Shown one piece after another: positions 6,733 to 60,571 of a stretch of DNA of 63,256 nucleotides. Source of the stretch: Candidatus Woesearchaeota archaeon. Its GTDB lineage: Archaea; Nanobdellota; Nanobdellia; Woesearchaeales; DSVV01. Numbering within the stretch: the stretch's first letter is position 1; every line of letters starts with the position of its first letter. The notes beneath the pieces are model-generated. The model was not told the DNA's origin. It made no database searches and saw nothing but the letters and a program-made list of their open reading frames with translations. The translations under genes were made by a program, and so were the position numbers. The stretch spans positions 1 to 63,256 of the forward strand of contig JACPTB010000003.1 of NCBI GenBank assembly GCA_016192995.1, in the 5' to 3' direction.

Positions 6733-6911
6733 TCATCTTTGCGATACAGATTTTAATAAAAGTGAAGAACGTAAGTACTTCATGAACTACTTGATACCCA
6801 ATAGTCCTAAGCTTATCATAAAGTAGTATGTTCTTTAATGATCATAATGGTATGGTGACAATAATAGTAACATTTTTAAATAGATATCTATAACTACTTT
6901 AAAGTGGAATC

Positions 6912-21439: not shown

Positions 21440-21886
21440 ATGGCTGAATCTCAAGAACCATTGGATGATAAAGTGGTACTTTATTGTTTACCATCTAATT
21501 TAGATTTTCTTGGGGGAACCAATGCTCTCAAAGCGTTCAAACAGCGTCAAGATGGTATTTCATATCTTGTGTTTATACTTGATAACGAAAGATATCATCG
21601 AGTTACGGCCTCTGGCCCCAAGGAAAAAATGGAGGTATCAGATCTCGGTCATGTTGTAATGTTATATAATTACGTTAAAGATAGGTTAAGAGAAGGAAAA
21701 TTAAGCGTAGTTGAACTTGCTAATCAAGAGAATTATCGGAAAAGATTGGAAGAGCTTTTTAGACAATCTCCACCTCATGAAGGGCAAAGTAAAGGATATA
21801 TTGTTTGTGATGAAAGAGTAAAAAATGATGTAATGGCAGTTGTTAAGGAATATTTACCTGAAATAAATATTACCGTTATTCGATAA
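21440..21886 (+). CDS. Hypothetical protein
   Basis: This 148-residue soluble protein of unknown family has an alpha/beta pattern (VVLYCLPSNLDFLGG, YLVFILDNERYH, GHVVMLYNYVKDRL). A TATA box at 21407-21414 stands about 25 bases before the ATG. Its 3' end overlaps the 3' end of the giant gene by 11 bases on the opposite strand. Confidence 0.6.
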   Translation: MAESQEPLDDKVVLYCLPSNLDFLGGTNALKAFKQRQDGISYLVFILDNERYHRVTASGPKEKMEVSDLGHVVMLYNYVKDRLREGKLSVVELANQENYRKRLEELFRQSPPHEGQSKGYIVCDERVKNDVMAVVKEYLPEINITVIR

Positions 21887-24800
21887 ACACCTGTTCTTTT
21901 AATACTTCAATTCGTTGTCTTATTTCATCTTCTGTAATGTCATTGTTCCTTGCATCTTCACGAGCAATTCTGTTTAATGCTCTTACTATTCCTACACGTG
22001 GGACTTCATATGGCTTGTTTGAACCTGCAAAAACAATAAATCTAACTCCGTTATATTCAACAGTTACATCATGGTTTCCAATAGGAGGAATCACCTTAAA
22101 CCCATCAATATTTTTCTCAAGAAGTGGGAGTACTTCTCGTGTATCATAGATATTTCTCAGCGTTACTTTATCTTTATCTGGAATCTTCTTTGGAATTAAA
22201 TAAAGATTTTTTGTTGGAGTAAATGGTTTGTATTCTGGATCCAATGTCTTTAAGAATTTATCAGCAACTTCTGCAATACTTCCTTGTTCTAATGATGTTG
22301 CTATATCACGCTGGAGATAAGCAGCTTCAAAATATCCTGCTTTTTTCAATTCTTCTTGCAAAAGTGGTTTAAGTTCTTCAGAATCTAAAATTTCTTCTAA
22401 ATCTGTTAACACTTCTTCAGCACTTTTGCTATAAATACTACTACCAACTTCCTTTCCAAGAATATAATTATCATCAACAAATTTAACGCTGCCTGATTGT
22501 TTGTCTTTGATAAATAATTTTGTTTGTTCTTTGATAATCACTTCGAGATTATCTTCAGCTAATACATTAGTTACTCGATCTAATACAACATCAGCGGCAG
22601 TGTTCTTTTGAAATTGGATGTCTATTATATCAACAGCGATTCCAGCATCAACAATCGTTGTTCCTCTGTCAATTGATTGCGCTTCAGTTGGTATTAAACC
22701 TGAATCGCCCTTTTTTACTTCTTCGATTGTTTTAACGACACTTGTTCTTGCAGATTTTTTTCTAATTGGGGAAGCATCTTTCCATCCTTGAATGTTGAGT
22801 GAACAAGATAAACTGCCCAGTTTACAGGATGATGATTCAAGTTCAGGATAAGAAATAGCATTGTAGATTTTCCGAGCAATTTCATCTTTACCTAACTTCC
22901 CTTCTCTTAACCATTTTTCTGCTAATGCTTGCCGCTGTTCTGCAATATTTTGATGGGGGATTTCACTGCCATGCTTTGCATATTCGCGTAGTTCACCTGC
23001 AGAAATAGTGATCACTCGAGTCAATGTCAATCGCTCTACTATCATTCTTCTTTGTTGGTCGTAGGCATATTCACCATTCTCATAAAATAGTTCTAATTCA
23101 TTCATATTATTGATAATACGATCTGCTATTTCTTCGGGTGATAATTTTGATAATCTACCCACCAAAAAATAAGATGTTCGGTGAATTAATCCATCCCATA
23201 ACAGAGAAAAGAATCCAAGAGTTATACCTAAAATCACTAATAACGCTGTTTTCAATGACTCAAGAGTACTTTGGTCAATAGTACTTTCAAAACTTTCTGC
23301 ACCCAATGCTTCTGAAGGGAGAAATAAGCTGAATAATACCACTGCTGCGATTCCTATTGCCTGCCTCAAACGTGAAACCGGTTGTGTTTTAAATGAGATA
23401 ACTTCAGCATAGGCATCTTCTTTTGTAGTGTCTTCTCCTTGATCTAATGCTTCAATTTTATCTAACATTTTGAGCCGGTCTTCTCTTTGTTCAAACGTAT
23501 ATTTTACTCTTAATGCTTGCGGAGTCATGTACATCTCTCCATCTTCTGTTGTTGTAAAAAATGAATCAACATTAGGCTTTCCATCCTGATCTATATCAAA
23601 CACTACTACGCGACTTGTTTTTCTGTCAGGAATAACTTCAACCGGCAGAACTATTCCTGGTGAGATTTCTAATGAACCTTGTTGAATTGCTGCTTGATCT
23701 ATAACTTTATACCCAAATCCAGAAATCAAATCTATTTTTTGACCATTGTTTAAGATAATAGCGCCTACTGCATCAGAATCATAACCAATTCCTGTTTCAG
23801 GATCATAAGGATTATATCTCATAGGAGTGTAACTTTTAATGCCAAGTTCTTCTAAAATACCTTGCTCTGCTTTTTCCTGCAGTAATTGATCTAATGTTCT
23901 CCATTGTGTTCGAGGAATAAGAACATCAGCATCTCCGGTACTTTCACCAATCAACGCAAGCTCATCTGCAATGCTTCCAGAACCGCTCATAGCCCATGCG
24001 ATTTGCTGCTGTTTTAAATAATCAGTAAATGGTTTAATATCCTCGAGAATTTGTTGTCTGCTCGTGTAACCAATACCTGAACTTGTTTCTATTTCAGCAA
24101 TAGGAATTTCATCTTCGATTGCATTATCAACAAAAATAAACAATCGCTCATTTCTTACTTTAAAATTTGCACTATCATGATTTTTTGCTGCATCTATTTC
24201 ACGATACGTTGCACTCTTTTTGCCGCTGCCAATATCTTTTGCTTTGGTTTCTTTCAATGTCTCTTCCAATGCTAAACCACGAGCTCCAATAAGGTCATCT
24301 GCTTGAGTGTAATCAGCATCATAAGCACGTTTGATGGCATCAGAGATCTCAACAGGTGTTAAAGCAGCAGCAAGTGTTTGTGCTGTTTGCTTTATCTCCT
24401 CAAGGGATGCTTTTTGTAAAAATTCATTAACACTGCTGACTCCCTCTTGAGCAAGAACTGTAGATACTATGGGATGTTGTTCGTTTGCCCTTAATAAAGA
24501 ATTAACAACATAGTTGTATCCGTATTGATGTGGTTCATGATCAACCTTAGTTTCTCCATAATTTTGAATGAAATATTCTAAATTTGGTTTAACATAAGGT
24601 CCAAACATAATCTCAGACATCATTGCTCTTGCTTCTAAATCATGTTCATGATCCTGCAGGATTCTATCTATAGAATCTTCTTTATGTTTAATTTCATGAA
24701 CTAACACAGATAAAATCCATTCTTCGTTAATCGTGGTTGGATCTTTAACATAGACAACAACATTTCTTCCATCAACAATAAGATCTGATGATCTTAATTT

Positions 24801-26756
24801 TGTTGCTTCTGAATAACCTCCCCATTTTGCATGAGGATCGTGGACTAAATAAATTCCATAGGTAACTCCCTTATAGGTCTGAGTAGTATAACCTTTCTCC
24901 ATAATGTCAGCGAGAAATAGATTTAAACTTCCCTGATCTTCAGAAGCTAATAATTTCCCTATTTCAATAACCCTATCATTTTTTCGCGATTTAACACCAA
25001 TTTTAAAATATAAACCATTTGCTTTAAAGAAATCAAATAAGATGGTATTGACTGCTTCTATGTTATTATTATCCTGACTTAATTCTCCCAGGAATGTAAT
25101 TCCTTGAGTAAAGGTAGGATCGTTTATTTCCTCAGCGAGTTGTTTTAGACGTTTCATAATTTTATTATATTTATAACGTGCAATGAATTTTTTAAAAAAT
25201 CCTACTTTGTTAAGATCAGCATATCCTAAAATAAATCTTCCTTTTTTAACGGGCAATGATTCCAATAATTGATTTAAACTAATGAATAAGTCAGTAATTT
25301 CTTCTTGTTTGTTATCTGATAATTGTTGGTATTGATTGGCAGGTTCATGAACTAAAGGAAGTATTTCAACAATAATCTTATTTTTTAATTCATGCTTTTG
25401 TTTTAGTGACTCAGGATCAGTTTTATCAGTGTACACGTCATCTATCTTGTTGAGTATAGTGCTTATGCTTATTTTTCCTTCAATAGTTTCTTCAACTTTA
25501 ACAAGAGGAGTTTCTGATAAACCTAATTGAGCAACTTGTTCATTCGAAAAATGCATGCTTGTTCCTGTTGGAGAGGTGGTTACTGCATCGCCAATGATGC
25601 GTTCTCTTTCGCTTTCAATCTCTAGTTCTGTTCCAATTAATTCATCTTGTTGTGCATAATCCTCTCTTGAAAGTAATTCACTCATAAGTAAATGAGCAGA
25701 ACTTCTAACAGAACCATCTGAATCAGAAACAAGAGGTTCTAGTGCTGCAATTGTATCCTTCACTAGTATAATCTTTTTATTAGTAAGTGATCTTAAAATT
25801 GTTATCGCACTTTTCCTAACTTCAGGATCAGTATCAGAAAGCAACCCTATCACTCTTGGAGCTGCTAATCTAAGTTCATCATCATACTCAGTAGATATGA
25901 GCAGACTTAACGTACTTAACGCATTGATCTTTATTCGAGAACTTGATGAAGAAGATAAAAGAGCTATGATGTTTTTAATAGCTCGTCGGCCGTCCATTTG
26001 TTTAAAATTTTTTTGTTCGTAAGATTGATGAGTATATAAAAATCCTAAACTAACTATAGCAGCAAATTTAACTTCTTCATTTTGATCAGCTGAGAAACTA
26101 TCAATAAGACTACTTATTAATGGTTCAACTGCAGCATTATATTCTTCAGCTGGCAATGCATCCAATGTCTGAAAGAAAAAATGGTTGGAAAAATCATTTA
26201 AATCTTTTAGTGCAACTAGTTTGTTGTTGTCTGAATCTGAAGCCAACTGGTTTTTCAATGCTTTTAAAAGTTTAATTTGTTCATCAAGATTTACTGGTTT
26301 TGTTTCTGCTACTGCTGAAGGTTGTTGAGCAGTTTGAGCGCTTGGCGTTTTCTTTTCAACTCTTGTAGGTGTTTGCTGTTCCTTAAAATACAAACGATCA
26401 GTTAAAACTGCTATTCCAAATAATGATAAAGGATACAAACCAGGAACAGGAATTGGAATTAATGGTAATGCAAGAATGTTCAATGCAACAAAAAGTATTT
26501 TTCCTGATCTTGGAAGCATTTGCCATAATCTTGGCATGGCTATTTTCAGTTGTGAAGAAATAAGGTTTAGAGGTTTCTTTGGAAGGAAGACATAATCTGA
26601 AATAAATAATTGTTTCGTTCCATCAGGTTGCGTTGTTACATATGGATCAAGGATTTTGTTTCTAACCAATAATCTATAAACCACTTCTTCTCCAGATAGA
26701 TCATGACTGTATCGCGCGCTATCGCTGGCTGTTATCCCTAACTTAAGCAGCATCAT
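21876..26756 (-). CDS. 3' part of the giant HEAT-repeat gene (1,626 aa)
   Basis: This frame continues the giant gene and is separated from it only by a 46-bp tandem duplication. The shared sequence LLKLGITASDSARY appears at the end of the first frame and at the start of this one. Features in order: membrane segments near residues 80-120 (LPLIPIPVPGLYPLSLFG); HEAT repeats around 150-370; a zinc-peptidase-like motif VHEIKHKEDS (His687) with a possible third ligand in DLEARAMMSE; a nucleotidyltransferase-like motif SGSGSIADE...TGDADVLIP near 920-950; two membrane helices around 1130-1190; and a C-terminal region of unknown fold. No ribosome site precedes the ATG at 26756, so separate translation would need re-initiation. 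Confidence 0.8.
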   Translation of the reverse strand: MMLLKLGITASDSARYSHDLSGEEVVYRLLVRNKILDPYVTTQPDGTKQLFISDYVFLPKKPLNLISSQLKIAMPRLWQMLPRSGKILFVALNILALPLIPIPVPGLYPLSLFGIAVLTDRLYFKEQQTPTRVEKKTPSAQTAQQPSAVAETKPVNLDEQIKLLKALKNQLASDSDNNKLVALKDLNDFSNHFFFQTLDALPAEEYNAAVEPLISSLIDSFSADQNEEVKFAAIVSLGFLYTHQSYEQKNFKQMDGRRAIKNIIALLSSSSSSRIKINALSTLSLLISTEYDDELRLAAPRVIGLLSDTDPEVRKSAITILRSLTNKKIILVKDTIAALEPLVSDSDGSVRSSAHLLMSELLSREDYAQQDELIGTELEIESERERIIGDAVTTSPTGTSMHFSNEQVAQLGLSETPLVKVEETIEGKISISTILNKIDDVYTDKTDPESLKQKHELKNKIIVEILPLVHEPANQYQQLSDNKQEEITDLFISLNQLLESLPVKKGRFILGYADLNKVGFFKKFIARYKYNKIMKRLKQLAEEINDPTFTQGITFLGELSQDNNNIEAVNTILFDFFKANGLYFKIGVKSRKNDRVIEIGKLLASEDQGSLNLFLADIMEKGYTTQTYKGVTYGIYLVHDPHAKWGGYSEATKLRSSDLIVDGRNVVVYVKDPTTINEEWILSVLVHEIKHKEDSIDRILQDHEHDLEARAMMSEIMFGPYVKPNLEYFIQNYGETKVDHEPHQYGYNYVVNSLLRANEQHPIVSTVLAQEGVSSVNEFLQKASLEEIKQTAQTLAAALTPVEISDAIKRAYDADYTQADDLIGARGLALEETLKETKAKDIGSGKKSATYREIDAAKNHDSANFKVRNERLFIFVDNAIEDEIPIAEIETSSGIGYTSRQQILEDIKPFTDYLKQQQIAWAMSGSGSIADELALIGESTGDADVLIPRTQWRTLDQLLQEKAEQGILEELGIKSYTPMRYNPYDPETGIGYDSDAVGAIILNNGQKIDLISGFGYKVIDQAAIQQGSLEISPGIVLPVEVIPDRKTSRVVVFDIDQDGKPNVDSFFTTTEDGEMYMTPQALRVKYTFEQREDRLKMLDKIEALDQGEDTTKEDAYAEVISFKTQPVSRLRQAIGIAAVVLFSLFLPSEALGAESFESTIDQSTLESLKTALLVILGITLGFFSLLWDGLIHRTSYFLVGRLSKLSPEEIADRIINNMNELELFYENGEYAYDQQRRMIVERLTLTRVITISAGELREYAKHGSEIPHQNIAEQRQALAEKWLREGKLGKDEIARKIYNAISYPELESSSCKLGSLSCSLNIQGWKDASPIRKKSARTSVVKTIEEVKKGDSGLIPTEAQSIDRGTTIVDAGIAVDIIDIQFQKNTAADVVLDRVTNVLAEDNLEVIIKEQTKLFIKDKQSGSVKFVDDNYILGKEVGSSIYSKSAEEVLTDLEEILDSEELKPLLQEELKKAGYFEAAYLQRDIATSLEQGSIAEVADKFLKTLDPEYKPFTPTKNLYLIPKKIPDKDKVTLRNIYDTREVLPLLEKNIDGFKVIPPIGNHDVTVEYNGVRFIVFAGSNKPYEVPRVGIVRALNRIAREDARNNDITEDEIRQRIEVLKEQVFIE

Positions 26757-26801
26757 ATCGCGCGCTATCGCTGGCTGTTATCCCTAACTTAAGCAGCATC
26801 A
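26710..26801. repeat. Exact 46-bp tandem duplication splitting the giant gene
   Basis: The unit at 26710-26755 is repeated without a mismatch at 26756-26801. Since 46 is not a multiple of three, it shifts the frame: the first frame stops at 26743 and the second opens at 26756. Deleting one copy gives one uninterrupted frame of 9,094 codons including stop from 49203 to 21876. Confidence 0.95.
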
Positions 26802-41800: not shown

Positions 41801-44800
41801 GTTAATAATGCTATTGACTGCTTTCCAACATCAGATGATGATTTTATTTCAATGCCTCCAACATTAATGCTATTCTTTGTATTGAACTCTAGTTTAGTGT
41901 CAGTAACTTCAACCAAACCTTCTTTGATTTTTGCTGTATCAAAAGAACTTCCTTTTACTGCTAATATTTGATCTGGTTCTCCTCTGACATTGTAAATCTG
42001 TATTGCCAATGGCTCGCCAAATTTGTTCGATGCAAGGATTTCATAAGATGGCTCTCCTGGCTTGGCATCTGATTTTGACTGAATGTTTTTTGAACTAAGA
42101 ACATCCGTTAATGAGTTATCTACTGATGCATATCTTTCACCTGAAACAGTTAATTTAGTGTTTGATACGCCTAAGCTTGTATGTTTTGCACCCAAAACAC
42201 TTTCTAAAGTATCCAAGCCATCATCAAGATGTGATGTGCCAGCTAATCTTCCTGATTGTTTTACCAAAGAAGGCATCAGAATTTCTTCGCCGCCAATTTC
42301 AGCAACATAAAATTTGAAAATATTTGCTGCAGTACTTTCTCCAACTACTTTTTCTACTGCACCTTCTAATATTTGTGTGTACGTAAATGGATTAAAAAAT
42401 CTCAATGACCCTTCAGTGATTGCATGAACAGCTTTTAAAGGCAATGCCGCAGTTTTAGATACTATATTCAATCCTGTTTTTGTAACTACATTTCCCGCAG
42501 TAGCACTTGCTGCTGCTGTTTTTTGGGAGATTGCTACTAATGTTTTAGCACCGGTGCTGGTAACAAAGCCAATTACACGAGAAGTTGCTTCCATTTCAAT
42601 TACTCCTTGTGGAGTAAAAAATGCATCAACATTAATGGGATTGCCAAACACTGAGATTTCAACTGGTTTGAAACTGCCCTGATAATCTGTTACGTAATCT
42701 GTTTTTACCGTATCTGGTTTAAACAAATTCTGACCATTGATGTCACGAGCCTGTGCAATTTGCTTTAAAACAAAAACAGCTTCATCTTGAGTTATTGACT
42801 TGCCCTTAAATGCATAAGCAGAAGCAATATCTTGTTCAGTTCTTAATCCAGCAATTTCATCATAGTTCAATCCAGACTCTGCTTTAATCTTTTTTATCTG
42901 ACCATATCCTTGTTCAAGATCATTGATTTCTGCAGCAATACGATTAATATCATTAATATCTTTGTTGTGACCAGCATTTTGATCTGCTATTGGTGTTGAT
43001 AATGCTTTTAATGCTGAAATCGCTCCACCATCATGTCCAAAAATACCCCCCACTTTCATCTTTTTTGTTAAATAATCTAAAGCAAACATCTTTTTGAGTT
43101 TAAGATCATTGTTTGCTGCAGCAATAGCACCTTCATAATACGCTTCAACTAATTGATCTGGTTTTGCAGCTGATGAAGCAAGATACATTCCTATTTGACT
43201 CACTGCACCTTTGAATTTAGCTTGTGATCCACCAAGAACATTTTTCTCTATATCAATTTCATCTTCACGTACTGCCCAAAATCCATCTTTATCAAACTGC
43301 AGTATATCACGTTCAACTTCATCAGTTAGTTTTTTATTGATAGTTTGAATGGCTATTTTTTGCGCTGAGAGCAAAGCTTGTTCAGGATCTTTAGTCCAGC
43401 CAGAAACAGGATCCAATGCTTTTTGTTGTTCTGCAAAGGTTAATGCCGTAACAGCCAAGTCATGGCTTAATGATTTATGCGCTTCAATTAACTCGTCTTC
43501 CGCATCACCAGGCACAAATAACATGTCATGCGCATGTTCATCTGATAATGATTGCAAAATCTCTTTATCAAGCCGCGCGTATATTTTTTCCAATGCTGCT
43601 TTTTTCTCTTCAATAAGCGCTAAATAAGGATGCTCCACTTTTTTTTCTAATGCTTCAATCAGTTTTTCCTGCTGATCAATTTCATTATCTGGAGCATCAT
43701 GTTCTTCTAATTGTTCTAAATGAGCTTCTGCTGCTTCTAAAGCAATTTCTGCCTGATATTTAGCACCTTGAGAATCAAGTTCTAGTTTCTGTTTTTGATC
43801 ATAAATTTTTTGAAGATCTTCTTCAGTGCAGGAACTAGCTCTGGTTAAACATGCAGCTTGAGAACTTCCTGCAACAGCTTCAATCTGAGATAATTCTATA
43901 AGACGGTCACGTACAGCACTCCGCACCTTATTTTCAAGGTTAGTTTTTGCTTCTGTAAGTTGCTGCAATTGATCTGCAGATAATTGTTTTTTAAGCTCTG
44001 GATCCATACCAATAGCTTGAAGAAGTGTGTTTAAATCACGCACGTGAAGGCCAGCTTTTTCCAAAGCAAGATCATCTAATATATCTTGGTATTGTGCGGT
44101 AACTTTGTCTTCTTGCTGAAGAATAACACGTAAGACTTTTTCTTTGCCTTGACTGCTTAAATAGTTCAAAGATTCAGTCGTAAGCTTCAATGCTGTGTTC
44201 GGATCAAATGAAGCAGCAAAACTAATCTTATCAACCACAAGAGAATCTACTGCATCTCGGTGTTTATCTGCCTGGTTGTTTAATTGTTGAATACGCTGCT
44301 GATATTCTTGAGAAGTAATTTCTCCTGCTTTTAATTGCGTTTCAAGCTCAAGTTTTGTTTGTGTTAAAACTGAAGCTGCAACTGTTTTTCTAAATTCCAA
44401 GACATCCAATAACGCTTTTTCATCAGCAGAATATTGATTAATTTCATTATATGATTGCTGTGATAAATAATCTGCTGTTTCTTTTTGCTTAGTATACTCC
44501 ATTTTTTTCTGGTTAATACCAGCAACAAGTGTGTCAATATAATCACTTTGATAAATTGCTGCATCAAGTTCCTGCAGATCTTCAAGAGTCATCTTTTTGA
44601 CTAACTCTGATTTAAGCAAATCTATAGCCCCTGCTGCTTCAACAGGCACCTCAACGCCATCTAGAACAACATATTCACCTGCTTTAGAATAGATACCAAC
44701 CAATTCTTTAAATGCTGCAATTTTTTCTTCAGGTGTTTTATAATTTTTGTCAACTAACATTGCCTTAAACGTATCCTTAAATGCATCAATGCGATCGCGG

Positions 44801-47800
44801 AGTTCAACAACATCACCAAATTTTCCTGCCTCTAAGCCGAGCGATTGCTGTTTTAATTGCTCAATAAGAATATATGTCTGATCAGTAGGCACTTTTGTTC
44901 GTTGGATTGCATTGAGGATTTCTGGCTTTGCTGAAACAGTTTCAAATAATGATTGTTTTCCCATGTCCCCAAATTGAGCAGCTAATTTAGTAATAAGGTA
45001 TTCAATTTCCTGTTCACGTTCAATATAAAGCTCTGATTTTTCTCCTTGGAGCAATTCACCTAAACGTTGATTTGATGATTTTAAATCTTGATATTGTGAA
45101 AACGTTACTTGATTGTAAGATTCAACTCCAGGATTAATAATTTGATCTTTCAAAGCATTTGAAAATGCACTATTTTTATCAAGCTCTTGCTGTATTTTTG
45201 CATCTGCATCAAAGTAAACTTTAGCTGCCAGATTCAAGGAATCTTTATCACCAAATTCTGCTAATCGCTGCGCCATTCCCTGTTTGCCGCCAAAAATATC
45301 CTGAACTCCTGAATAATAAATACCGTGAGCAGCTGCAATTTGCAAAGCAATTTTATCTCCTTGGAAGCCACCTTTGCTATACCCTATTGCTAACCGCTGT
45401 AGCTGTTCATTATACCATTGTTTGTAGTCTTCAGGAGAATCTTCAGATGGAGGAACTGCATCTTGGAGAGTTTTGACTGCTTCATTGTATTGCTTTGCTA
45501 ATTCCTGTTGTTTCTTTTGTTGACTAACCTGACCAAGATACTGATCTAATTGTTTTTTTGTTGTACCGAGAACTTTTGCCTGAGCATCTAATCCTTTAAT
45601 ACTTGCTATAACTACTTTTATTTTTTCTTTGCATCCTTGTATGGTCAAGTCTCCACAATCTATGCCATATCTTGATTTAAGATCAATTAATCCTTGTTTT
45701 TCAAGATCTTGTTTTGAAGGCAGTGATACTCCTGCAATTTCTACGCCAAGTCCTTCAACTAATGCAATTATTTGATCTACTTTTTGATTATCAGCATCTA
45801 CAAGTTCTTTAATCTGTTCTGGAGTTAATCCTAACTCAACTAATTGTTTTTTAGTCTCTGTTTCTGCTTTTATAAGATATTCTCTTGCCTTATATTTACT
45901 GCTCAAATCTTTCTGTTGTTGGTAAATATCAGCTAATTCGCTTAAAATATTGATATTTTTAGGATCATTAAATAATGCGCGCTCAAGGGCTGCTACTTTA
46001 TCTTCAGGTGCAACTACAAGCTGCGCTTCAAGTATTTCTGCCTGGCTTCGCTGTTTGCTGTAATCAGTTGCAAATTCTTCTTTTCTGGTTAATTCATTCA
46101 GTTGTGTCAAATAAAGTTCATTGTATTTTTGCGCATTTGCTTCATCACCAAGCGAAGCGTAATGTTGGCTAGCAACAGCCAATGAAGTTAAATCCTGATT
46201 TTCTTCCAATGCTGCCTGCACAATTGTTTCTCGAATGTCACCATTGACAATGTTTTGACTGCCTTGACTAAGCAGCGTTGAAGTTATTTTATTTAGTTCA
46301 ATTGGTGAAACGCCTTCTTGTGATAGCTTGCTTGCCACATCATCAACTTGTGCTTTAACACGAGCAATATATTCTTCAGCGGTTTCACCCGTTTGATACT
46401 CTAAATCTATGCCGCTTGCAGCTAACTGCACCATCTGGGGAATTAATGATGTTGCATAATCTTTGTTGACTGCATCCAATTTTTTATATGCAGACTTCAT
46501 CGCTGCAAGCGCTTGATCTGTTTTACCTTGATTAAACTGTGTTTTAGCTAATTCAACCAATGCTTGTCCAGCTAATTCTTCATCATCTGATTGAGTAACT
46601 GCAATAATAAGCTGCTGCGCTTCAGTATTTTTTCCCTGTTTAGCTAAAGCCATTGCTTTTTTATAGAGAAGAACTTCCATAGTAGTATCTGCTCCTCGAC
46701 CATCAGGATAATATTGCTGAATCAAACTGGCGATAAGATCTGATGCTTCCTGGTAAGAACCTTTTTCAAACAAGACATCTGCAATCTTTGACTGAACCAT
46801 CTTATTCAAGGCGGGATCATTAATTTGTTGATAAACATTCAAAGCATCATCATATTTCCCTTCAATAACTTTTTCATTTCCTGCTATCAATTTTTCAACA
46901 GCCAACCGTTTGTCGTCTGGTATTTTTCCAAGAAGGTATCCTTTAAATTGATCATTGAGAGCATGCAACGAATCATACGTGAATTGCAATCTAGCTAAAT
47001 CTTCTGGTTTGTATTGTTCACCAGTAAACTGTGTTGTTAATCGTGCAGTTTCAAGGATTTTAGCTCGGAATTGTACATATTGTTTTACTTTTTCATTAAT
47101 GCCATCCTCTCCCTGCACCAGCACAGCGTCAGATACAAAGCTATTTGCAGCTTTATCAAAGCTTGATGTCGTTAAACTAATAAATGCGTGGCTAAAATCA
47201 TTGACAACACTAACAATGCTTTCTTCCGGCTTGTGTGAAACAGGAATTATTTTCAAGCCGCCCTCGAATATATATTCGTCGTAATTTTTATTTAAATTAC
47301 GGAGCTGTTGATGACTTACTTTGGTTGCAACAATACCATCAGTTTTATCAAACAAGAAGTTCATAGTAAATACTTCGCCAGTTTTCTTGTCAATTTGCTG
47401 TGTTGTAGTTTCGAGAAGATTCTTAACATTGTTATCATTATGATCAACAATAATAGTTGGCTGGGTATCTTTTAAGCCAGCATCATAAAATAACATAGTT
47501 CCTTTATCTTTTGGATCAAATGTTTGTGTTATTAATGTACCTTCAAGTACTTTTCCTGCATCAATGGAGCCTTGACCAAGCGATGAAATTTCTTTGCCAT
47601 CTTGAGTTACAAACACAGCATTTTTAGGAATACTATTATAGGTTTTCTTAAGAAGCTCAAGACGAGCATCCAATGCAAATAAACAAGTATCTTTAGTAGC
47701 ACAGCTTACACGATATTTTTTCTGCACTGCTGCTTGAATACAAGATGATTTATCATTGATATTGCAGGTAACTTCATATTCTTCTTGAATATCAATCGCT

Positions 47801-49203
47801 GACATCAATCCCAACTGTTCAAATTCCTTTCCAGCTTCTTCACGCCTAAACTCGTAAGCTCCTCTAATGTGCATGTAATCTGCTAAATCCAAGCCTTTAG
47901 CTTGCAGGGTTTTGCCTTGAATAAAAACAGTTCTTGCTTCTCCTTCAATGCCATATATTTTATCATTGCGTTGTTCATTCCCAAGCTCAAAATAACTTTC
48001 TTTTCCCTGCAATACAACTTGGCTGGCTTTAGTATTAGCGATAATCGCGTCAAATGTCCCTGATATCTTTTGTGAACTAAATTCAGGTGATGCTGGCGTA
48101 TATACCATCTCTGCTTGTTTACCTTCAATTCTGGTTATTTCTTTTGTCCCTGACTTAAAATAGAATTGTACAGATCCAACAACATTACCTTGTAAAACAC
48201 CCTGTTCATCGCCAGTTTTGAATGCTGCGCCGCTCTGCAGTTCAAGACGATCTTTTTTAACAATAACTTTTGTTTTTTCACCCTGATGAATGGTAACTTC
48301 AACACCATTAATGATGGCTTTTGTAGCGTCAGGCGAGATTAATACTGAGTTTCCAATGTTATCAACATAAATATCTGTTCCTCCCTGCACGAGACTTATC
48401 TTCTTTCCACCAGTTAACGTGATTTCTACTCCCAAAGTTCCGTCAGCTTTTTTAACAAGATCAACGCTTTGCGCAACACCGGAAACTTTTTTGCAGTCGT
48501 TGTCGCAGATGACAAAACCCTTTGCAATACTTCCATCAGGGAGCTGTTTTTCAACTGCTGAAATTACACCTTTAAAACCAGCAGCTACGTCAGCAGCTAT
48601 ACCTCTCAAGCGTAGTTGGCATTTAAATTCAATATCTTGCCTCAATGAAGGACAGGGAGCTTTATAATCTTTGAAATATAATCCATCTTGACGAGAATAA
48701 TGAACTCCTCCTTGCAATACAAAAGTAGCTTTTGACGCACCAGGAATTAATTTATTTAATACAGCATTAACTGTAGCTTGGTTCAGTTTGGTTATGTCTC
48801 CAACTTTTTCAAGATTTTCTCCTTCATTATACCATAATTGCTTTTCACTGAGATATTGTTTTTGTGTATCAGTTAATCGTAGTACATCAACGTTATCAAC
48901 AGGAATTTTGCTGACGATAGTATTCGGAACCAGCTCTTGTTTTACTTTTTCCCAGGGAACACTTGGATCATTAATGATTTGATCCCATGGAACAGTATTG
49001 TAATTGATAGATTCCCACGGTACGCTCCCATAATTGCCTTTTAATTGATTCCACGTTTGAAGATTATTGTAGCTATCTGGATTATTAAAATCTATTTTTG
49101 GAGGATCAGCAGCCAAAATACTTGAAGCTATCACCAGCGTGATCATTAAGTAAATCTCAAGCAAACTAATTCTCTTTTTCCACTTCAAGCTTAGCAAACT
49201 CAC
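26743..49203 (-). CDS. Giant multi-domain HEAT-repeat membrane protein (7,486 aa)
   Basis: It starts with GTG overlapping the previous stop (TAGTG) and has a signal peptide (to about residue 31, SSILA). Approximate order: three VPW[ED] repeats (59-95); a beta-rich region (100-600); TPR-like repeats (770-1130); a long coiled coil (1150-2250); a Pro-rich linker (2725-2780); HEAT repeats; membrane helices (about 2990-3040); HEAT (3040-4430) with further linkers; a Pro-rich linker (4430-4480); HEAT; membrane helices (4715-4790); HEAT (4820-5400); a membrane cluster (6005-6145); a Lys/Ala/Pro linker (about 6400-6450); membrane helices (6475-6545 and 6910-6935); HELSH (His7036), a putative metallopeptidase; and HEAT to the end. 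It is probably an envelope protein acting in contact with other cells or in surface assembly; that role is inference. The last gene of a three-gene operon, it has normal coding over 22 kb. Confidence 0.85.
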   Translation of the reverse strand: MSLLSLKWKKRISLLEIYLMITLVIASSILAADPPKIDFNNPDSYNNLQTWNQLKGNYGSVPWESINYNTVPWDQIINDPSVPWEKVKQELVPNTIVSKIPVDNVDVLRLTDTQKQYLSEKQLWYNEGENLEKVGDITKLNQATVNAVLNKLIPGASKATFVLQGGVHYSRQDGLYFKDYKAPCPSLRQDIEFKCQLRLRGIAADVAAGFKGVISAVEKQLPDGSIAKGFVICDNDCKKVSGVAQSVDLVKKADGTLGVEITLTGGKKISLVQGGTDIYVDNIGNSVLISPDATKAIINGVEVTIHQGEKTKVIVKKDRLELQSGAAFKTGDEQGVLQGNVVGSVQFYFKSGTKEITRIEGKQAEMVYTPASPEFSSQKISGTFDAIIANTKASQVVLQGKESYFELGNEQRNDKIYGIEGEARTVFIQGKTLQAKGLDLADYMHIRGAYEFRREEAGKEFEQLGLMSAIDIQEEYEVTCNINDKSSCIQAAVQKKYRVSCATKDTCLFALDARLELLKKTYNSIPKNAVFVTQDGKEISSLGQGSIDAGKVLEGTLITQTFDPKDKGTMLFYDAGLKDTQPTIIVDHNDNNVKNLLETTTQQIDKKTGEVFTMNFLFDKTDGIVATKVSHQQLRNLNKNYDEYIFEGGLKIIPVSHKPEESIVSVVNDFSHAFISLTTSSFDKAANSFVSDAVLVQGEDGINEKVKQYVQFRAKILETARLTTQFTGEQYKPEDLARLQFTYDSLHALNDQFKGYLLGKIPDDKRLAVEKLIAGNEKVIEGKYDDALNVYQQINDPALNKMVQSKIADVLFEKGSYQEASDLIASLIQQYYPDGRGADTTMEVLLYKKAMALAKQGKNTEAQQLIIAVTQSDDEELAGQALVELAKTQFNQGKTDQALAAMKSAYKKLDAVNKDYATSLIPQMVQLAASGIDLEYQTGETAEEYIARVKAQVDDVASKLSQEGVSPIELNKITSTLLSQGSQNIVNGDIRETIVQAALEENQDLTSLAVASQHYASLGDEANAQKYNELYLTQLNELTRKEEFATDYSKQRSQAEILEAQLVVAPEDKVAALERALFNDPKNINILSELADIYQQQKDLSSKYKAREYLIKAETETKKQLVELGLTPEQIKELVDADNQKVDQIIALVEGLGVEIAGVSLPSKQDLEKQGLIDLKSRYGIDCGDLTIQGCKEKIKVVIASIKGLDAQAKVLGTTKKQLDQYLGQVSQQKKQQELAKQYNEAVKTLQDAVPPSEDSPEDYKQWYNEQLQRLAIGYSKGGFQGDKIALQIAAAHGIYYSGVQDIFGGKQGMAQRLAEFGDKDSLNLAAKVYFDADAKIQQELDKNSAFSNALKDQIINPGVESYNQVTFSQYQDLKSSNQRLGELLQGEKSELYIEREQEIEYLITKLAAQFGDMGKQSLFETVSAKPEILNAIQRTKVPTDQTYILIEQLKQQSLGLEAGKFGDVVELRDRIDAFKDTFKAMLVDKNYKTPEEKIAAFKELVGIYSKAGEYVVLDGVEVPVEAAGAIDLLKSELVKKMTLEDLQELDAAIYQSDYIDTLVAGINQKKMEYTKQKETADYLSQQSYNEINQYSADEKALLDVLEFRKTVAASVLTQTKLELETQLKAGEITSQEYQQRIQQLNNQADKHRDAVDSLVVDKISFAASFDPNTALKLTTESLNYLSSQGKEKVLRVILQQEDKVTAQYQDILDDLALEKAGLHVRDLNTLLQAIGMDPELKKQLSADQLQQLTEAKTNLENKVRSAVRDRLIELSQIEAVAGSSQAACLTRASSCTEEDLQKIYDQKQKLELDSQGAKYQAEIALEAAEAHLEQLEEHDAPDNEIDQQEKLIEALEKKVEHPYLALIEEKKAALEKIYARLDKEILQSLSDEHAHDMLFVPGDAEDELIEAHKSLSHDLAVTALTFAEQQKALDPVSGWTKDPEQALLSAQKIAIQTINKKLTDEVERDILQFDKDGFWAVREDEIDIEKNVLGGSQAKFKGAVSQIGMYLASSAAKPDQLVEAYYEGAIAAANNDLKLKKMFALDYLTKKMKVGGIFGHDGGAISALKALSTPIADQNAGHNKDINDINRIAAEINDLEQGYGQIKKIKAESGLNYDEIAGLRTEQDIASAYAFKGKSITQDEAVFVLKQIAQARDINGQNLFKPDTVKTDYVTDYQGSFKPVEISVFGNPINVDAFFTPQGVIEMEATSRVIGFVTSTGAKTLVAISQKTAAASATAGNVVTKTGLNIVSKTAALPLKAVHAITEGSLRFFNPFTYTQILEGAVEKVVGESTAANIFKFYVAEIGGEEILMPSLVKQSGRLAGTSHLDDGLDTLESVLGAKHTSLGVSNTKLTVSGERYASVDNSLTDVLSSKNIQSKSDAKPGEPSYEILASNKFGEPLAIQIYNVRGEPDQILAVKGSSFDTAKIKEGLVEVTDTKLEFNTKNSINVGGIEIKSSSDVGKQSIALLTSADINKYREKYEAVNAESGIKLHEVTATTADGGTVKGYFYNNDPAQGLIIQTTAEQVRKLPTITSLTVTSGAETGTVALDSKVTTTKESLKQALLAAASQDSLLENSLKSKKAPADFGDLIKAKFWKYQTPEEQGAEVMIEEILSKSKGSARELLVALRDEYGILTVDLESKVSHPVLDSMIEQAKKNLPVENKALDAQLKSVQDIKQDPSKLSSAHYALRKTIADMQKAQGLSQEKTLLVMEQVLNQQIESINELLVSEPEKPGPQPTVPAPSPVTPSTTPPTILPPPIQPVPPTQPVIPAAVVAPATKPEVQPSVTAPVIDPLVQQHITTLQTTDNIFSLNSAMDALVALTDRQGIEQAVEPLFAALGHSSPVMRQRAAKTVGELVQKGVIAPETALAKLEPLRKDPAQQVRITAVNTISNVEAIKAQRESSVVVGVEKEEPLVALQTTGTSGVAQDLAKEAQKSGLEKVIPITSGIVTTEAPVVAEEKPVEGEVPEIPSTEVVQEAGPPTTFSGRITLAVLTASAAIGSALGLKTEGALEIAVQTGSTFGLSGRNWLILGLSFVTAGLIALGILIFKYGSIGDGIETLRTKLIISRYNQNSDRFIRNRVLLRDLNRKGITHINNIDIDHLTDPTETAESKVAYELSILNLFTLDDITEQVYDALRLKHSDDNINARIHEILYDNNPTTRAVAAQELSTPRITRGLQLDENGYEAERYAVLGPLLGAALLDPDENVREVARNSLARLRVLPGFRTVIQRLLPTEFPKKDIYTIKIRISALISALYQADGIEERIFWLQSNLQNLKTNADVELVSASIYALTALADKLTDGQVEEIINSLRIILMSRKLVGIRYYAALFINRFSFTQTTEGNPLRHLSPEKAAEFIPLLEALETDMESLTPKEEYEVPRSNVIGIRQRLEQLQTLTPTSTLPPVARALAYLTSSITHEPTGLYSLQRLAAKKQEGLESTVDIIIAQMPLIVDDDSNVLIDTLQTYVDNGIITSEALAAKLQEPFDALSAGTKKTAFEEFIVTLKETRVVPVSVAPSETPGLLEKPEIPVAAPEAVEISDSFGAFLFTPIPTTPLPLDTEEVIVDDEATRKARIADVNKGLRSRGVPRPEELPSAAAPILAEAEVVAAAVPVDQTAGLTEQELAGIEELPPGEFTEVEPKLPSLRPGPGNIDEYIYRITKLDAELKAKDNPSDVVETVYDEGLNAIETLAEASRIAGAEKAIKPLLGIAANTKLTGIDAATRRKAIQTLHALRRLVWPAGSVEVLEGLTDPDVGAEVKAVLDDIKKAQIEVVTPPTPTPPLAAPPAKAPELTTADTFAALLTDLKSDSDIVAINAINQLASNPDSRAIQPLLDLTYSRTASLEVKKAAVAVLGSFEKLPWPQGTLARLAALVRNNELAQGAKDSLGLLGQEKVELAVEELIKIMDTKIRQDIIAVAIIAVAEVIEQLYSFEETDAAKDKLTEIVLDPQQYPRVKLAAYKALLKISRENGVFEIEIEAYNIGTKLLQQESAGTLPALETPVRPEVDIPPYELERPKPFEKLNRVVADLLRELTKNHQSTAAADGSTTYPAENFPQLDGYKVPTTPQSITGTIVPLLSSIQSAKDKAQLRLLVYPLIASIARDQRADQKQAKINLLNGIIAVDSSLKGFISAAAKDLGVTLGVGQQTGLYVDILNLQQADGTLTLKVQQAVAILSPAVKDSFAIETAVTQLANEGIGEKIKETVVTETGRPLQPDIETVRPVLEILGVTTIDQAVSKLKSALIASRSSEELSAALRGIVKLKDLPETDALNSELERIIKDENNLYHPLIRLQAYETLEQTAQHGGELLPIQPKISLLADRLKARESQLPPVPHPLVEDILLGIQAYIQSNQPPELAVKPNDVPAIRKMADELQPVVAAGKKEDLKLLVTPLLIAYASNEKHTAYISILNALILADPSLQSYIQQKARELRLTLTLVTVQTPSLPPVTSTIPPTPPPTVPPSAPAQSTTPSAPAPAPPSAPAKQTGQPSQASATLRTLPTDAKAEDRDTYEISISTGNEVEAIEALYKLAAVKNRYDIGFLLSRVSVGNIPAAVKVEIIKVLGDHYNDYEWPVDRMRHLWGQRNVPELKDAAIESFAKLSTTDLKELSEYAWFMLRGTEKIQFQIESISILKDTALLLSARNENIVGLKTKLRAIIEERFHDSKVHDAAQQALDAIDAAESGRSSEELGISTSPPEISEPGFDFGVDTNPFVDLTPPPTLPKKGGGGGFGGSGPAIVGIALAMGVSLIARLAGADELAEEIEQNGISGTTVRIILFGLFLTIVTIPVIGYVKDKYGTIANAYYAFRLNRVFKEKNKLYPEPKERIDRNVALLKELQNKKLASASDDDIKDYESKARPAAALGNNIDEYLYLVELYSAGKISSQVLRRLLPESTNPAIQTGIKDLDSRDPHEQYSAIRTLESTQSNHQDHSLVAAHLLLTALADTSDSMRSSAARVFQAQNMQGVLPKIIQFFADAETGRLPGAERRYEFIGNVVTHDNNYDFAALKPQLIAAAADTTKSMNERVATLRALDYLGLSADELQQIYPFIKEIVTSGTGGQINAVIIFVGRNSILSNLSEGQVHELLSLSLTQFKDKGSLDLALLLSLLIGRAGNTDETQRIIPELITLLNQGQPVENLLYILGSMLNIQGIEAVVLEFEPLTTTDDKTVLKALIGLVNQLHQVQGMDRYIPFLIEQLDHKDGHVRQLAGYALTEYAGFTQANNALSKLDDLRKNDQDEYAKSAAERAYTAITGRHNAGTQVGPTTPQTTPSFGPQIPTSEGPVKQDRDSLYRTIETGNPADAVNALVDLASDKESRDIDVLLSMLKNNRILPRVKRAIIRVLGRDYREFSWSDEQLREIMRFAAIPSLGQTVLQAVNDLGHEKKTTMVTLLTTKLSDQTQNIRINAASILQALAPFAETDAAKDALQARINKADEVKQVRDAATAALNAINTRQPFIASDVGLPTRRQPAPSSQTPQGQVRLIVAIAGVKAEDGNVNPQMTAAITTLTSGNVYEAALQLSQTITQPAVPSPQAPQGAAPVTTPSPAAQPVSHDASQLKTKQEQHDVARLNQLRNTGYRSVVDALHAFDVAEISSYFTAEEVAELERLIGSKNRDAILTSDEIVLLEYHTRTKGDIQIPKLFGIDKEKTAALKRKLQSAGIYSINGIVAQLNHQLTGIPLEQRRQIKKLVGGTGATLTLEDILKFNLYRRAHGIVVEDDRIDERKEGSHYQKTRVSELQQRQLTSLEAVLGTESYVALLETPLFRSPSALDEMLPGKTAITVDAIQTILETHIHHAQQREHDDQYHLAIQALEHYLGLGLEYGRDIVYAQLSQYYNTLGMQEVSSHYEELSKKAAPTQEAIRAIAPRQPYTEKPFDNERTITGIEPEADLEPIAEDSKESDKLEAYGLTLNPGQISLGIEKITLNDRWYNRLGRWLIARVGIKTPEYTVTINAHPSVFDKEGKAARRLKRIAENLVRLEEINGKEDPTLLGLTKPGNKWSVEEAEETLNKAAPTKLRSVFSGWGKSALIVGGLFVADYILPGIMSAFGMDASTWYAKTAGVEGSLESVGSAALGKTLLGHILGGNYVVLSIIALTAASFSVGNILAFGFLALLGNVIGFTSGKILLIAGARVMVGPILKWLAGKISKKTIRKTPAYTIQVRTSKQNMANDKENKIKEKFSTWFIPFRTRRFSFRTGQFSEEGVQFDNAQVPVLGADQLALEVNRQLVLRDTIDPRTLPGLRVGKKVRPVQTEPPTKWINWMSKFRILGSRSILLPILALTGLLFTKSDSRFVLLEETLPVEDKIEQVKPKTIQPRSAEQETKRAFERRGIEQSTALLAQNEIQEKITQSQSDEITNAEKIPLLEKVVRIATEMLADSSVSEGDRTYFKAQRKYAEDKLAALKETTPAAESPAKTEPQAPAKAKPTAKPAEEKPDFEAPTVKPKAPPKAKPKPAEDKPDFSKAGVQDVDVEVAQVQPVLSQPVKNTIGAVTAGLVGLGILLAPAGAAASTGAGGVAAAGASTGVWTTIVAVASNPVTWIVVGALAIGGGIWWWLNRKIAKSSTSITETEAKQLALSVLKLKKNDQGFLSANFGPKAPGDKHLTDKEVSDLTALPSPILRLQYLLTHGFSVNDVAIRAGGLPAVAISEGEDGEEVDETADRASRQQRINKLVAPLLDGYSNVYGISPDVAPQIIHDLALADDPNSVLDILEKNKIIRDRQVSILGALINADLITLSRDELYLQLYDMSLDELASNFRDLPSGILSELLRQPPVNRLLFLERKSSYQLLGIYLFANRRDQLPVSLEMLAKTISDGMPFEDGLLNQRKLQQRLENKQLRFGDRFYVGYVDQSEILPEGAETAVTSIVYAKTWMTYYGGTDFVDDNGNKIPLSKIAYAEQYGRISLFKRIFSKYNPYAVILKIGLVALSVLGVLIIWIIAAPRRIDLPSSKTAVVDVSVTVDSPSSLADNVIGGQLTQDEFEKALDYLQKRFKAYPRGFLSVHLKNIKLLKNIRLNGQSAGGFQSGDTFYVDYNSLFTDNNIIYSVLDHELSHAVVRERLAMLYYYGTEPEFAGQSKQTIIHNLLELVKKLGTGNSAVLLYDVLNDGTILDTVSVYYTLSDGTVQKASYTSEIIQELTDAGYEIDDLTQFIDNAETAAANELWKNSLKGGLWIEANPHQQDDYVASWPYNGYGSFFIDERLDTFFSAYGKNGLLDDIATASESMFQNLYLATLRGLKHPALGKKLELLKNIYMRSSSLLIDEQDIETMMIESARKLVPNLVAKYENQGSEVLREALLTPSEYIPALIESALDRSNPDVQANAIQALGLLQTREAVAELLELLDSDDTDQETKRLVIEALGRIGSNYYANQYLTIEALIDLLGGTHTAEVAIALGRIGDFSALYPLSQAMASAENEQQRTAIAAALSAMPFDLADADETLLVSSLETYDQLHGGQLAELRKLKQRPEILFTHHPQLTDEQKVMLLKLGITASDSARYDAA

Positions 49204-50240
49204 TACTTAACCACCTTAAGTATAATCTCTTGCTCAGCAGTTTGACCAATGCTGTCAACAGCTTTAATCGTGACTGGAAATTCACCAGTAATATGTGGAA
49301 TAAAACTAATCCTGGCGTTTCCTTTGTTTGTTCCATCATGTTCAATAGTAAAGAAAACACTGTCATCGCTGAACACCAGCGGATCATCTGATTGATAAGG
49401 AATATCCAACGTAAACAACTGTTCATCTTTTAAGGTGTACAGTGCATCAAGGTCAAGAACAGGAGCACTATTAACTGGGAATTTTGCAGCAGTTTGGAAA
49501 ATCAAATCGTTATCTTCAAATGAAAACAACAGGGTTTCTTTATCAACGGTAATAATTTTGATAGGAACATCAAATGATTGTAAATAGGTTAAATCAAGAT
49601 ACTCTTTATCTGCAATTTGCTTATCAATAACTTTATGCGCGAGTTCGTTAACATATCCTAATCTAAGATTAACGGTTGTTGAAAAAGTATCAATCGTTTC
49701 TTTTAGTTTCTCTTGTGTTTTATCTTCCTGACCACCTCCTTGGCTTAGAACAACCGTGACAGGATACTTGACAGTGACATCAACATTGTTTTTTGCAATA
49801 CTTGTCTTTACGTTTAAAGATCCTGCTTCTATTGTTTTGCCGGGCAGAGCTTTGAAATCATTAATACAAACAATTAATTGTTCACTGATATATTTATTCA
49901 GCTGCGCTTCCATGCTTTCAATATCCAACAGCTGCTTTTTTCCTTTGTTATAGCCATAACCAACTTTTATGTCGCCAACAAGAACAGCATCTTCGGGCAG
50001 ATATACATATCCTCCTTGTGCTGCCAACAACAGCACTGCTGGAGTAGAAACTTGTTCAAGGCATTTATCAACAAAGGTTTTTACTGGCTGCAGATCAACA
50101 GAGACTTTTGTTTCAGGTTTTTTACTCGTGCTAAAGAAAATAACCATTCCAATAATCAAGAGCAATGCTAATCCAATAATAATAAATACGGTCACTTGTC
50201 CTCGTTTAGGTGTTATAGCTACCCTGCCTATTTTGGTCAT
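49203..50240 (-). CDS. Pilin-like membrane-anchored secreted protein
   Basis: The 345-residue protein begins with a short basic stretch and KRGQVTVFIIIGLALLL, a type-IV-pilin-like hydrophobic N-terminus (residues 12-36) often seen in DPANN secreted proteins. The outer part has about 200 residues of mixed structure with two Cys (CLEQ, VCIND). A C-terminal Ig/cadherin-like domain follows (about 250-345: APVLDLDALYTLKDEQLF, then FTIEHDGTNKGNARISF). Start and stop overlap both neighbours (ATGA upstream, TAGTG downstream), showing translational coupling with the giant gene. Confidence 0.75.
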   Translation of the reverse strand: MTKIGRVAITPKRGQVTVFIIIGLALLLIIGMVIFFSTSKKPETKVSVDLQPVKTFVDKCLEQVSTPAVLLLAAQGGYVYLPEDAVLVGDIKVGYGYNKGKKQLLDIESMEAQLNKYISEQLIVCINDFKALPGKTIEAGSLNVKTSIAKNNVDVTVKYPVTVVLSQGGGQEDKTQEKLKETIDTFSTTVNLRLGYVNELAHKVIDKQIADKEYLDLTYLQSFDVPIKIITVDKETLLFSFEDNDLIFQTAAKFPVNSAPVLDLDALYTLKDEQLFTLDIPYQSDDPLVFSDDSVFFTIEHDGTNKGNARISFIPHITGEFPVTIKAVDSIGQTAEQEIILKVVK

Positions 50241-50980: not shown

Positions 50981-51093
50981 TACTGGCACTGCTGCTTAGA
51001 TTCCCAACAAATCTAATAATGTCTTTACTAATAAATCACACAACTCTCCACTTATTTACAGAAAGAGGAAATATATAAAGTTTTGCACTGTTT

Positions 51094-58923: not shown

Positions 58924-59163
58924 CTAGAAACTCAAATTCATATTTTCTACTGCATCTTTTAATTCTTCAAATAATTGTTGTTTTAGTGGTTTAACATCTT
59001 GATAAGGTATCTTTTTTCCCGATCGTAATTCTTCGATTGTTACATGGTAGATTGCTTCAATATGCTTATTAATGTAACCTATAACACCTAAACTTTTGAG
59101 AATAACATCTGCCAAAGATAAATCTTTCCCTTCTTCATGCACAATTTGATATAACGTTTTCAC
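58924..59163 (-). CDS. Small helical protein of the kinase operon
   Basis: The 79-residue protein is all-helical by appearance (YQIVHEEGKDLSLADVIL; TIEELRSGKKIP; KQQLFEELKDAVENM). Its start overlaps the stop of the kinase gene by four bases (ATGA), so it is translated with it. No family is recognised. It could be a kinase partner or substrate. Confidence 0.55.
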   Translation of the reverse strand: MKTLYQIVHEEGKDLSLADVILKSLGVIGYINKHIEAIYHVTIEELRSGKKIPYQDVKPLKQQLFEELKDAVENMNLSF

Positions 59164-60569: not shown

Positions 60570-60571
60570 TA

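What the first reader, a model, noticed from the sequence alone, without database searches (positions are those of the whole stretch)
21876..49203. Giant envelope protein with two HExxH motifs and a nucleotidyltransferase-like motif
A signal peptide, TPR, coiled coil, many HEAT repeats, repeated membrane segments, HELSH (residue 7036), HEIKH (residue 687 of the second frame) and TGDADVLIP are combined in one chain of about 1 MDa. I know of no characterised archaeal protein with this order. A tiny-genome archaeon spending 27 kb on one gene suggests a major role, perhaps in attachment to or attack on a partner cell.
Basis: partly seen in the sequence, partly recalled or inferred. Interest (0 to 1): 0.85.

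Follow-up and report, generated by a model that had tools for sequence, protein, structure and literature searches.

The report
Giant mosaic surface protein with partner
A woesearchaeal (DPANN) archaeon carries a gene of about 27 kb for a giant secreted or membrane-stitched protein; relatives of this gene sit behind the same small pilin-like gene across the order and carry different enzymes at their tails, so this looks like a modular contact weapon or signalling scaffold and not a one-off oddity.

Summary
ORF1 (7486 aa) and ORF2 (1626 aa) are one gene split by a perfect 46-bp tandem duplication (26710-26801); relative G257 has a single copy and an open frame there. The first 2,785 residues are homologous to giants in other woesearchaeal genomes (G001; an uninterrupted frame of at least 10,066 aa in G003; G004; G257). 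The HELSH domain has four homologous copies, all with HExxH; the three read past the motif share a glutamate about 170 residues downstream. The nucleotidyltransferase-like motif is invariant (GS, DxD, third Asp) in two proteins of another family. HEIKH has no relatives and is unproven. The gene follows a small membrane protein (RGQVTVFIIIG N-terminus). Among 20 further close homologs of that partner, all 17 with enough sequence are followed by a large signal-peptide-type ORF, often 2,000-6,000+ aa. Tails differ: PP2C, FHA, HAD, beta-lactamase, GGDEF, PPP phosphatase, GNAT, DEAD, kinase-like. Best reading: a Sec-exported, partner-assisted giant scaffold presenting exchangeable enzymes at cell contact. 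It works like a polymorphic effector but is not shown to be one; SPEARE domains are absent. Which side of the membrane the enzymes face, and their catalysis, remain unproven.

The parts
50237..50989 (-). 250-aa winged-helix-like gene upstream; a similar gene precedes the partner in G003 and G004
   Evidence: Pfam DUF6577 E 1.6e-4, below cut-off. Function inferred.
49203..50240 (-). Partner gene, 345 aa: N-terminus KRG-QVTVFIIIGLALLL resembles an archaeal class III (pilin-type) signal; Ig-like C-terminal region (weak, seen in the G001 homolog). Overlaps the giant's start codon by one base.
   Evidence: Homologous in G001, G003, G004, G231 (A4; hhalign E 6.9e-20); 330/353 genomes of the order have a homolog. 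Pilin nature inferred from the N-terminus; no Pfam hit.
40849..49203 (-). Giant gene, conserved core (ORF1 1-2785): signal/anchor with IYLMI motif, TPR at 847-907, long helical part
   Evidence: Homologous to G001 1-2836, to parts of G003, G004 and G257 (38.7% over 1185 aa)
49105..49203 (-). Signal peptide or signal anchor
   Evidence: Hydropathy segment 12-30 preceded by 4 positive residues; motif IYLMI shared with homologs
46483..46665 (-). TPR
   Evidence: Pfam TPR_16 E 3e-7
40786..41058 (-). Pro-rich linker that ends the core; more linkers at ORF1 3753-3813, 4416-4508, 5503-5562 and 6391-6477
33304..40749 (-). HEAT-repeat arrays with a TM at 3028-3046 and a TM hairpin at 4726-4786
   Evidence: Pfam HEAT_2 E 7.6e-30 and 4.9e-5; hydropathy
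30826..31152 (-). Cluster of hydrophobic segments (ORF1 6018-6126)
28420..28476 (-). TM segment directly before the metallopeptidase domain (ORF1 6910-6928)
27334..28416 (-). Metallopeptidase-like domain (ORF1 6930-7290), HELSH at 7036-7040, candidate third ligand E7209
   Evidence: Homologs in G257:C22 and G004:C17 (E 2.4e-29 and 2.5e-17); HExxH in all four homologous copies and glutamate conserved in the three read past the motif
26884..27336 (-). HEAT repeats after the metallopeptidase domain
   Evidence: Pfam HEAT_2 best stretch there; same arrangement in G257
26710..26801 (.). Perfect 46-bp tandem duplication (two copies) that shifts the frame between ORF1 and ORF2
   Evidence: TRF, sequence; one copy and an open frame in G257
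21876..26756 (-). ORF2, 1626 aa: the downstream part of the giant gene
25656..26186 (-). HEAT repeats of ORF2 (191-367)
   Evidence: Pfam Cnd1 E 1e-11, HEAT_2 E 9.2e-9
24684..24698 (-). HEIKH motif (ORF2 687-691), possible second zincin site
   Evidence: Sequence only; no homolog found; weak local match to the HELSH profile, E 0.017
23451..24113 (-). Nucleotidyltransferase-like domain (ORF2 882-1102): SGS, D-x-D (GDADVLI), third Asp (KIDLI)
   Evidence: Homologs in G231 and G230, E 4.7e-37 and 2.2e-33; the SGS and three Asp are invariant
23208..23369 (-). TM hairpin of ORF2 (1130-1183)

Best explanation
This is the giant half of a two-gene surface module of Woesearchaeales. A small membrane protein with a pilin-type N-terminus is made first and, through a one-base overlap, probably coupled to translation of a Sec-exported giant. 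The roughly 2,785-aa core faces outside (TPR, beta-rich and helical parts) and is the docking or adhesion part. The remaining several thousand residues form a HEAT-repeat, membrane-stitched arm carrying exchangeable enzyme modules: here a zinc-metallopeptidase-like domain and a nucleotidyltransferase-like domain, elsewhere phosphatases, kinase-like domains, GGDEF, GNAT, beta-lactamase. On contact, the arm presents or delivers these enzymes to a partner cell or its envelope. Shown: gene family, partner synteny, domain mosaic, conservation of HELSH and of the nucleotidyltransferase residues, the 46-bp break. Inferred: coupling, export by the partner, membrane side, catalysis, target. In this assembly the copy is split; if the duplication is real in the cell, the tail with HEIKH and the nucleotidyltransferase would be made separately or not at all.
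For: Partner homologs are directly upstream of the giants in G000, G001, G003 and G004 and, among 20 further close partner homologs in the order, upstream of a large ORF in 17 of 17 with enough sequence (5510+, 6154+, 5867+, 6059+, 4967, 5895+, 3078, 2133 aa and others). Core homology crosses family boundaries while tails differ, and tail domains recur between unrelated cores: nucleotidyltransferase G000/G231/G230, PP2C G001/G014, kinase-like G003/G314 at 47%. Enzyme domains by Pfam: FHA 2e-16, HAD 5e-13, PP2C 1e-12, beta-lactamase 7e-18; GGDEF 1.5e-18, metallophosphatase 4e-16; metallophosphatase, DEAD, PP2C; GNAT 2.2e-8. HELSH conserved in four homologous copies. Several family members (G231, G222, G314) have no TM beyond the signal by hydropathy, so their enzyme tails would be outside. 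The genome encodes a T2SSE-type ATPase, two T2SSF proteins and a prepilin peptidase.
Against: No experimental or proteomic evidence. HEIKH has no homolog. Structure models unusable. Positive charge flanks the TM hairpins rather than their loops (0.133 vs 0.054 K+R per residue over 9 hairpins), which hints that the HEAT parts lie in the archaeon's own cytoplasm. GGDEF, PP2C and FHA are normally cytosolic. No immunity gene is recognisable downstream (the next gene, 21440-21886, is convergent). Partner paralogs with ordinary-sized downstream proteins are common, so the partner is not specific to giants.
Confidence: 0.5

Rival explanations
1. A transmembrane contact sensor: the core is outside, the HEAT arms and enzymes lie in the archaeon's own cytoplasm and signal inward (phosphorylation, cyclic dinucleotide, nucleotidylation) when the partner is touched.
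For: Positive-inside charge pattern of the TM hairpins; tails include FHA, PP2C, PPP phosphatase, GGDEF and kinase-like domains that use cytosolic cofactors; two Ser/Thr kinase genes lie on the same contig.
Against: Several family members have no internal TM yet carry nucleotidyltransferase or kinase-like tails; the beta-lactamase-like domain in G001 and the metallopeptidase fit an outside location.
Confidence: 0.3
2. A mostly structural coat or adhesin giant, in which the enzyme-like parts are relics or scaffolds without catalysis.
For: Most of the length is repeats and linkers; giant coats are proposed for Omnitrophota (PMC10066038).
Against: Catalytic residues are conserved in distant homologs: HExxH plus Glu, nucleotidyltransferase triad.
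Confidence: 0.12
3. A decaying gene: the 46-bp duplication makes the copy a pseudogene in this organism.
For: Perfect 46-bp duplication with frame change; G001 is also split into 3055 and 6282 aa frames.
Against: Both parts stay open over 22.5 and 4.9 kb; G003 and most others are open over 15-30 kb; perfect copies fit a very recent event or an assembly error.
Confidence: 0.06
4. A SPEARE-type nanohaloarchaeal giant, part of a VirB4-like secretion system.
For: Similar size and signal peptide; DPANN host (PMC6642349, PMC10266531).
Against: No laminin-G, VirB4/TraG or type III restriction-type domain found in G000, nor in the G001, G003, G004 and G257 parts scanned.
Confidence: 0.02

Closest known systems
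SPEARE / giant surface proteins of Nanohaloarchaeota (PMC6642349, PMC10266531)
   Same: DPANN archaea; thousands of residues (up to 9,409 aa); signal peptide and membrane anchor; proposed role in host contact
   Different: SPEARE have laminin-G/Ig adhesion domains and a VirB4/TraG-like ATPase (first read as type III restriction); here HEAT and TPR repeats, several TM stitches, interchangeable enzymes and a pilin-like upstream partner
Giant ORFs of Omnitrophota, e.g. Velamenicoccus archaeovorus, 39,678 aa (PMC10066038)
   Same: Giant, many TM segments, proposed coat or predatory role
   Different: Bacterial; described as poorly conserved with few annotated domains; no partner gene reported in the passages read. 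Sequence homology was not tested here.
Polymorphic toxin systems (PMC3482391)
   Same: Conserved secreted N-part with exchangeable C-terminal enzymes, including HExxH peptidases and a kinase toxin
   Different: No immunity gene recognised, no known toxin Pfam in the tails, many enzymes per chain, far larger
Minor pilin-assisted secretion, TcpB/TcpF (PMC9565799)
   Same: A pilin-type protein and its secreted cargo encoded together
   Different: Only an analogy of arrangement; no homology shown and no binding tested

Membership tests
SPEARE giants | Laminin-G/Ig adhesion domains in the extracellular part | tested here: not met
   No Laminin_G or Ig Pfam hit in the giants scanned; the partner, not the giant, has a weak Ig-like end
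SPEARE giants | VirB4/TraG-like ATPase or type III restriction-type domain | tested here: not met
   No such Pfam hit in G000, or in the parts of G001, G003, G004 and G257 scanned; G119, another member, has a DEAD hit
Polymorphic toxin systems | Conserved N-terminal part with exchanged C-terminal domains | tested here: met
Polymorphic toxin systems | Immunity gene next to the toxin | tested here: not met
   Next gene in the window is convergent; none recognised, though an unknown family could be missed
Polymorphic toxin systems | Toxic activity of the tail | not testable with these tools
   needs expression
Zincin metallopeptidases (gluzincin type) | HExxH conserved among homologs | tested here: met
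   HELSH, HETGH, HELNH, HEFFH, HEFFH
Zincin metallopeptidases (gluzincin type) | Third ligand Glu in a later helix | tested here: inconclusive
   E7209 conserved in the copies read far enough, geometry not modelled
Zincin metallopeptidases (gluzincin type) | Match to a known family or structure | tested here: not met
   No significant Pfam, NCBIfam peptidase or PDB sequence match
Pol beta-type nucleotidyltransferases | GS motif, DxD and a third Asp | tested here: met
   invariant in three sequences
Pol beta-type nucleotidyltransferases | Match to a known family or fold | tested here: inconclusive
   No significant PDB sequence or Foldseek match; model confidence low
Type IV pilins (partner gene) | Class III signal peptide cleaved by a prepilin peptidase | tested here: inconclusive
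   N-terminus KRG-QVTVF resembles it but lacks Glu5; no Pfam hit; a prepilin peptidase gene exists in the genome

The most novel reading that the evidence does not exclude
Woesearchaeales share an undescribed two-gene contact system: a pilin-like partner exports and holds a giant arm of up to more than 10,000 aa whose enzyme modules are swapped between lineages, a DPANN counterpart of polymorphic effectors used on partner cells.
Probability: 0.4. Interest if true: 0.9.

Novelty: new variant of a known kind. Interest (0 to 1): 0.75.

Why it matters
How most DPANN archaea act on their partner cells is unknown. A syntenic marker (the partner gene) that leads straight to giant, enzyme-bearing surface proteins in genome after genome gives named candidates and testable domains, and widens giant DPANN proteins beyond Nanohaloarchaeota, with an architecture unlike SPEARE. 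G003's uninterrupted frame (at least 10,066 aa, running off its contig) is longer than the 9,409 aa reported as the largest protein of a cultivated archaeon (PMC10266531).

Tried and rejected
AlphaFold2 single-sequence models of the HELSH domain and of HEIKH plus nucleotidyltransferase: pLDDT 34.8 and 43.3; the Foldseek PDB search with the second gave nothing below E 0.001, and no fold search was run with the first. Pfam and NCBIfam on single domains of the window: nothing significant for HELSH, HEIKH, nucleotidyltransferase, the N-terminal beta part or the C-terminus, apart from a weak partial NCBIfam hit to a lipoprotein model in the HELSH domain (E 5.6e-5, 22.6 bits against a cut-off of 250). 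PDB sequence search with the nucleotidyltransferase and HELSH alignments: no significant match. IMG/VR for the core: none. ORF2 as a BLAST query in 79 relatives: only itself. hhalign of the core against the G231 N-terminus: no homology, so the small giants of family f62 share partner and tail, not core. hhalign of kinase-like tails to the window's kinases: supported only for G222 (E 4.5e-5) and G003/G314 (E 7e-4); for G001, G230, G231 and G257 'kinase-like' rests on motif reading. HELSH and HEIKH being the same family: only a local match around the motif (E 0.017). The first hypothesis that the partner is specific to giants was rejected by the control: in 19 of 20 lower-ranking partner paralogs the next gene is also a signal-peptide-type protein, but of 470-2,292 aa; lengths differ from the top group, Mann-Whitney P 0.0024 with all lower bounds, 2e-5 without the three most contig-cut ones. 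The two groups were picked by rank of the partner's score, not at random.

Full report
What is there. The window is a whole contig (63,256 bp) of a 1.617-Mb, 16-contig archaeal genome. A relative in the same family is Candidatus Woesearchaeota archaeon RIFCSPHIGHO2_02_FULL_32_12, so the organism is taken as a woesearchaeote. Composition predicts about 0.09 HExxH in both together; two are present.

One gene, split. The end of ORF1 and the start of ORF2 repeat the same peptide. Tandem Repeats Finder reports a perfect 46-bp unit, two copies, 26710-26801 (sequence). 46 is not a multiple of three. In G257 the homolog of the ORF1 tail (residues 279-474 of its frame) and of the ORF2 head (460-526) lie in one open frame with one copy. 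So the two frames are one gene in origin; whether the duplication is in the cell or in the assembly cannot be told here. G001 is also split (3055 and 6282 aa, overlapping), G003 is not (10,066 aa, open to the contig end).

Family. The N-terminal core (1-2785) matches G001 1-2836 end to end, G003 and G004 in parts, and G257, of another family of the order, at 38.7% over 1185 aa; weaker matches reach G025 and G056. A profile of core residues 1842-2726 (A2) hits only three of 353 genomes of the order, all in this family; the wider relatives were reached through the partner gene.

Partner. Directly upstream, overlapping the start codon by a base, is a 345-aa membrane protein with the N-terminus KRG-QVTVFIIIGLALLL and an Ig-like end; before it a winged-helix-like gene. 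The partner precedes the giant in G000, G001, G003 and G004, and the winged-helix gene is seen in G000, G003 and G004. Partner homologs occur in 330 of 353 genomes of the order and in other orders of the class. Stretches were drawn for 20 of the best hits outside this family (G231, already in hand, is a further one); three contigs end too soon; in the other 17 the next gene is a large, mostly signal-peptide-type frame. As a control, 20 lower-ranking paralogs were read: 19 are followed by a secreted-type protein of 470-2,292 aa. So partner plus secreted protein is a general module of these archaea and giants are its upper end.

Tails. Pfam finds FHA, HAD, PP2C and beta-lactamase in G001, GGDEF and a calcineurin-type phosphatase in G003, the same phosphatase and DEAD in G119 and PP2C in G014, GNAT in G004, an ABC1-kinase-like hit in G222 (weak). 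Related tails sit on unrelated cores. In the window the tail has two enzyme candidates. (1) The HELSH domain: BLAST homologs in G257:C22 and G004:C17, where four copies read HETGH, HELNH, HEFFH and HEFFH, followed in the three that were read further by a conserved glutamate (E7209 here) about 170 residues on, and then by HEAT repeats. (2) The nucleotidyltransferase-like domain: 37-40% identical to parts of G231 and G230, with SGS and three Asp invariant. HEIKH has no relative.

How it may work. Shown steps: gene order, homology, mosaic, conserved residues. Inferred steps: export, partner assistance, membrane side, enzyme action. The arrangement recalls polymorphic toxins (PMC3482391), and the partner-cargo pairing recalls TcpB/TcpF (PMC9565799); both are analogies. 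The genome does have a T2SSE ATPase, T2SSF proteins and a prepilin peptidase. The charge pattern around TM hairpins points the other way, to cytosolic HEAT arms, so an inward-signalling scaffold is the main rival.

Comparison. SPEARE giants of Nanohaloarchaeota share size and lifestyle, not domains (PMC6642349, PMC10266531); no laminin-G or VirB4-like domain was found. PMC6642349 does report sequences similar to the intracellular SPEARE part in Woesearchaeota assemblies, but none was seen in these giants. Omnitrophota giants (PMC10066038) are similar in scale; homology was not tested. Literature searches found no description of this module, within a library that lacks most subscription papers.

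Limits. Names are hidden for most genomes; contigs end inside several giants; linking G257:C40 with C22 and G004:C3 with C17 as one gene each is inference. Topology rests on hydropathy only. The number of giants with a shared core is small.

Noticed in passing
window 59160-60575 and 60572-61690 (-): Two overlapping Ser/Thr protein kinase genes (Pkinase E 9e-24 and 2e-24) with a weakly FliG_N/MgtE_N-like neighbour (61717-62565).
   Followed up: partly
window 62434-62539: 36-bp tandem repeat (about 2.5 copies, 72-76% matches) within the 61717-62565 gene.
   Followed up: no
window 62750-63256 (-): Small Pol beta-type nucleotidyltransferase frame running off the contig end (Polbeta E 4e-4, below cut-off).
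   Followed up: no
window 11499-13529 (-): 676-aa secreted Ig-like protein (He_PIG E 4e-13) with a Thr-rich stretch and C-terminal hydrophobic segment.
   Followed up: no
L014/L015 (G003:C7): GGDEF domain (E 1.5e-18) inside an archaeal giant protein.
   Followed up: partly
L027 5697-6656 (G231): ADP-ribosylglycohydrolase-like frame (by eye, no profile run) just downstream of the 2,438-aa giant, same strand; could be unrelated or a counter-enzyme.
   Followed up: no
L007 13250-13320 (G001): Second giant of the family also broken by a small frame change, just after its core.
   Followed up: partly
L109 (G257:C22): N-gaps inside a metallopeptidase copy; two copies of the domain on one contig.
   Followed up: partly
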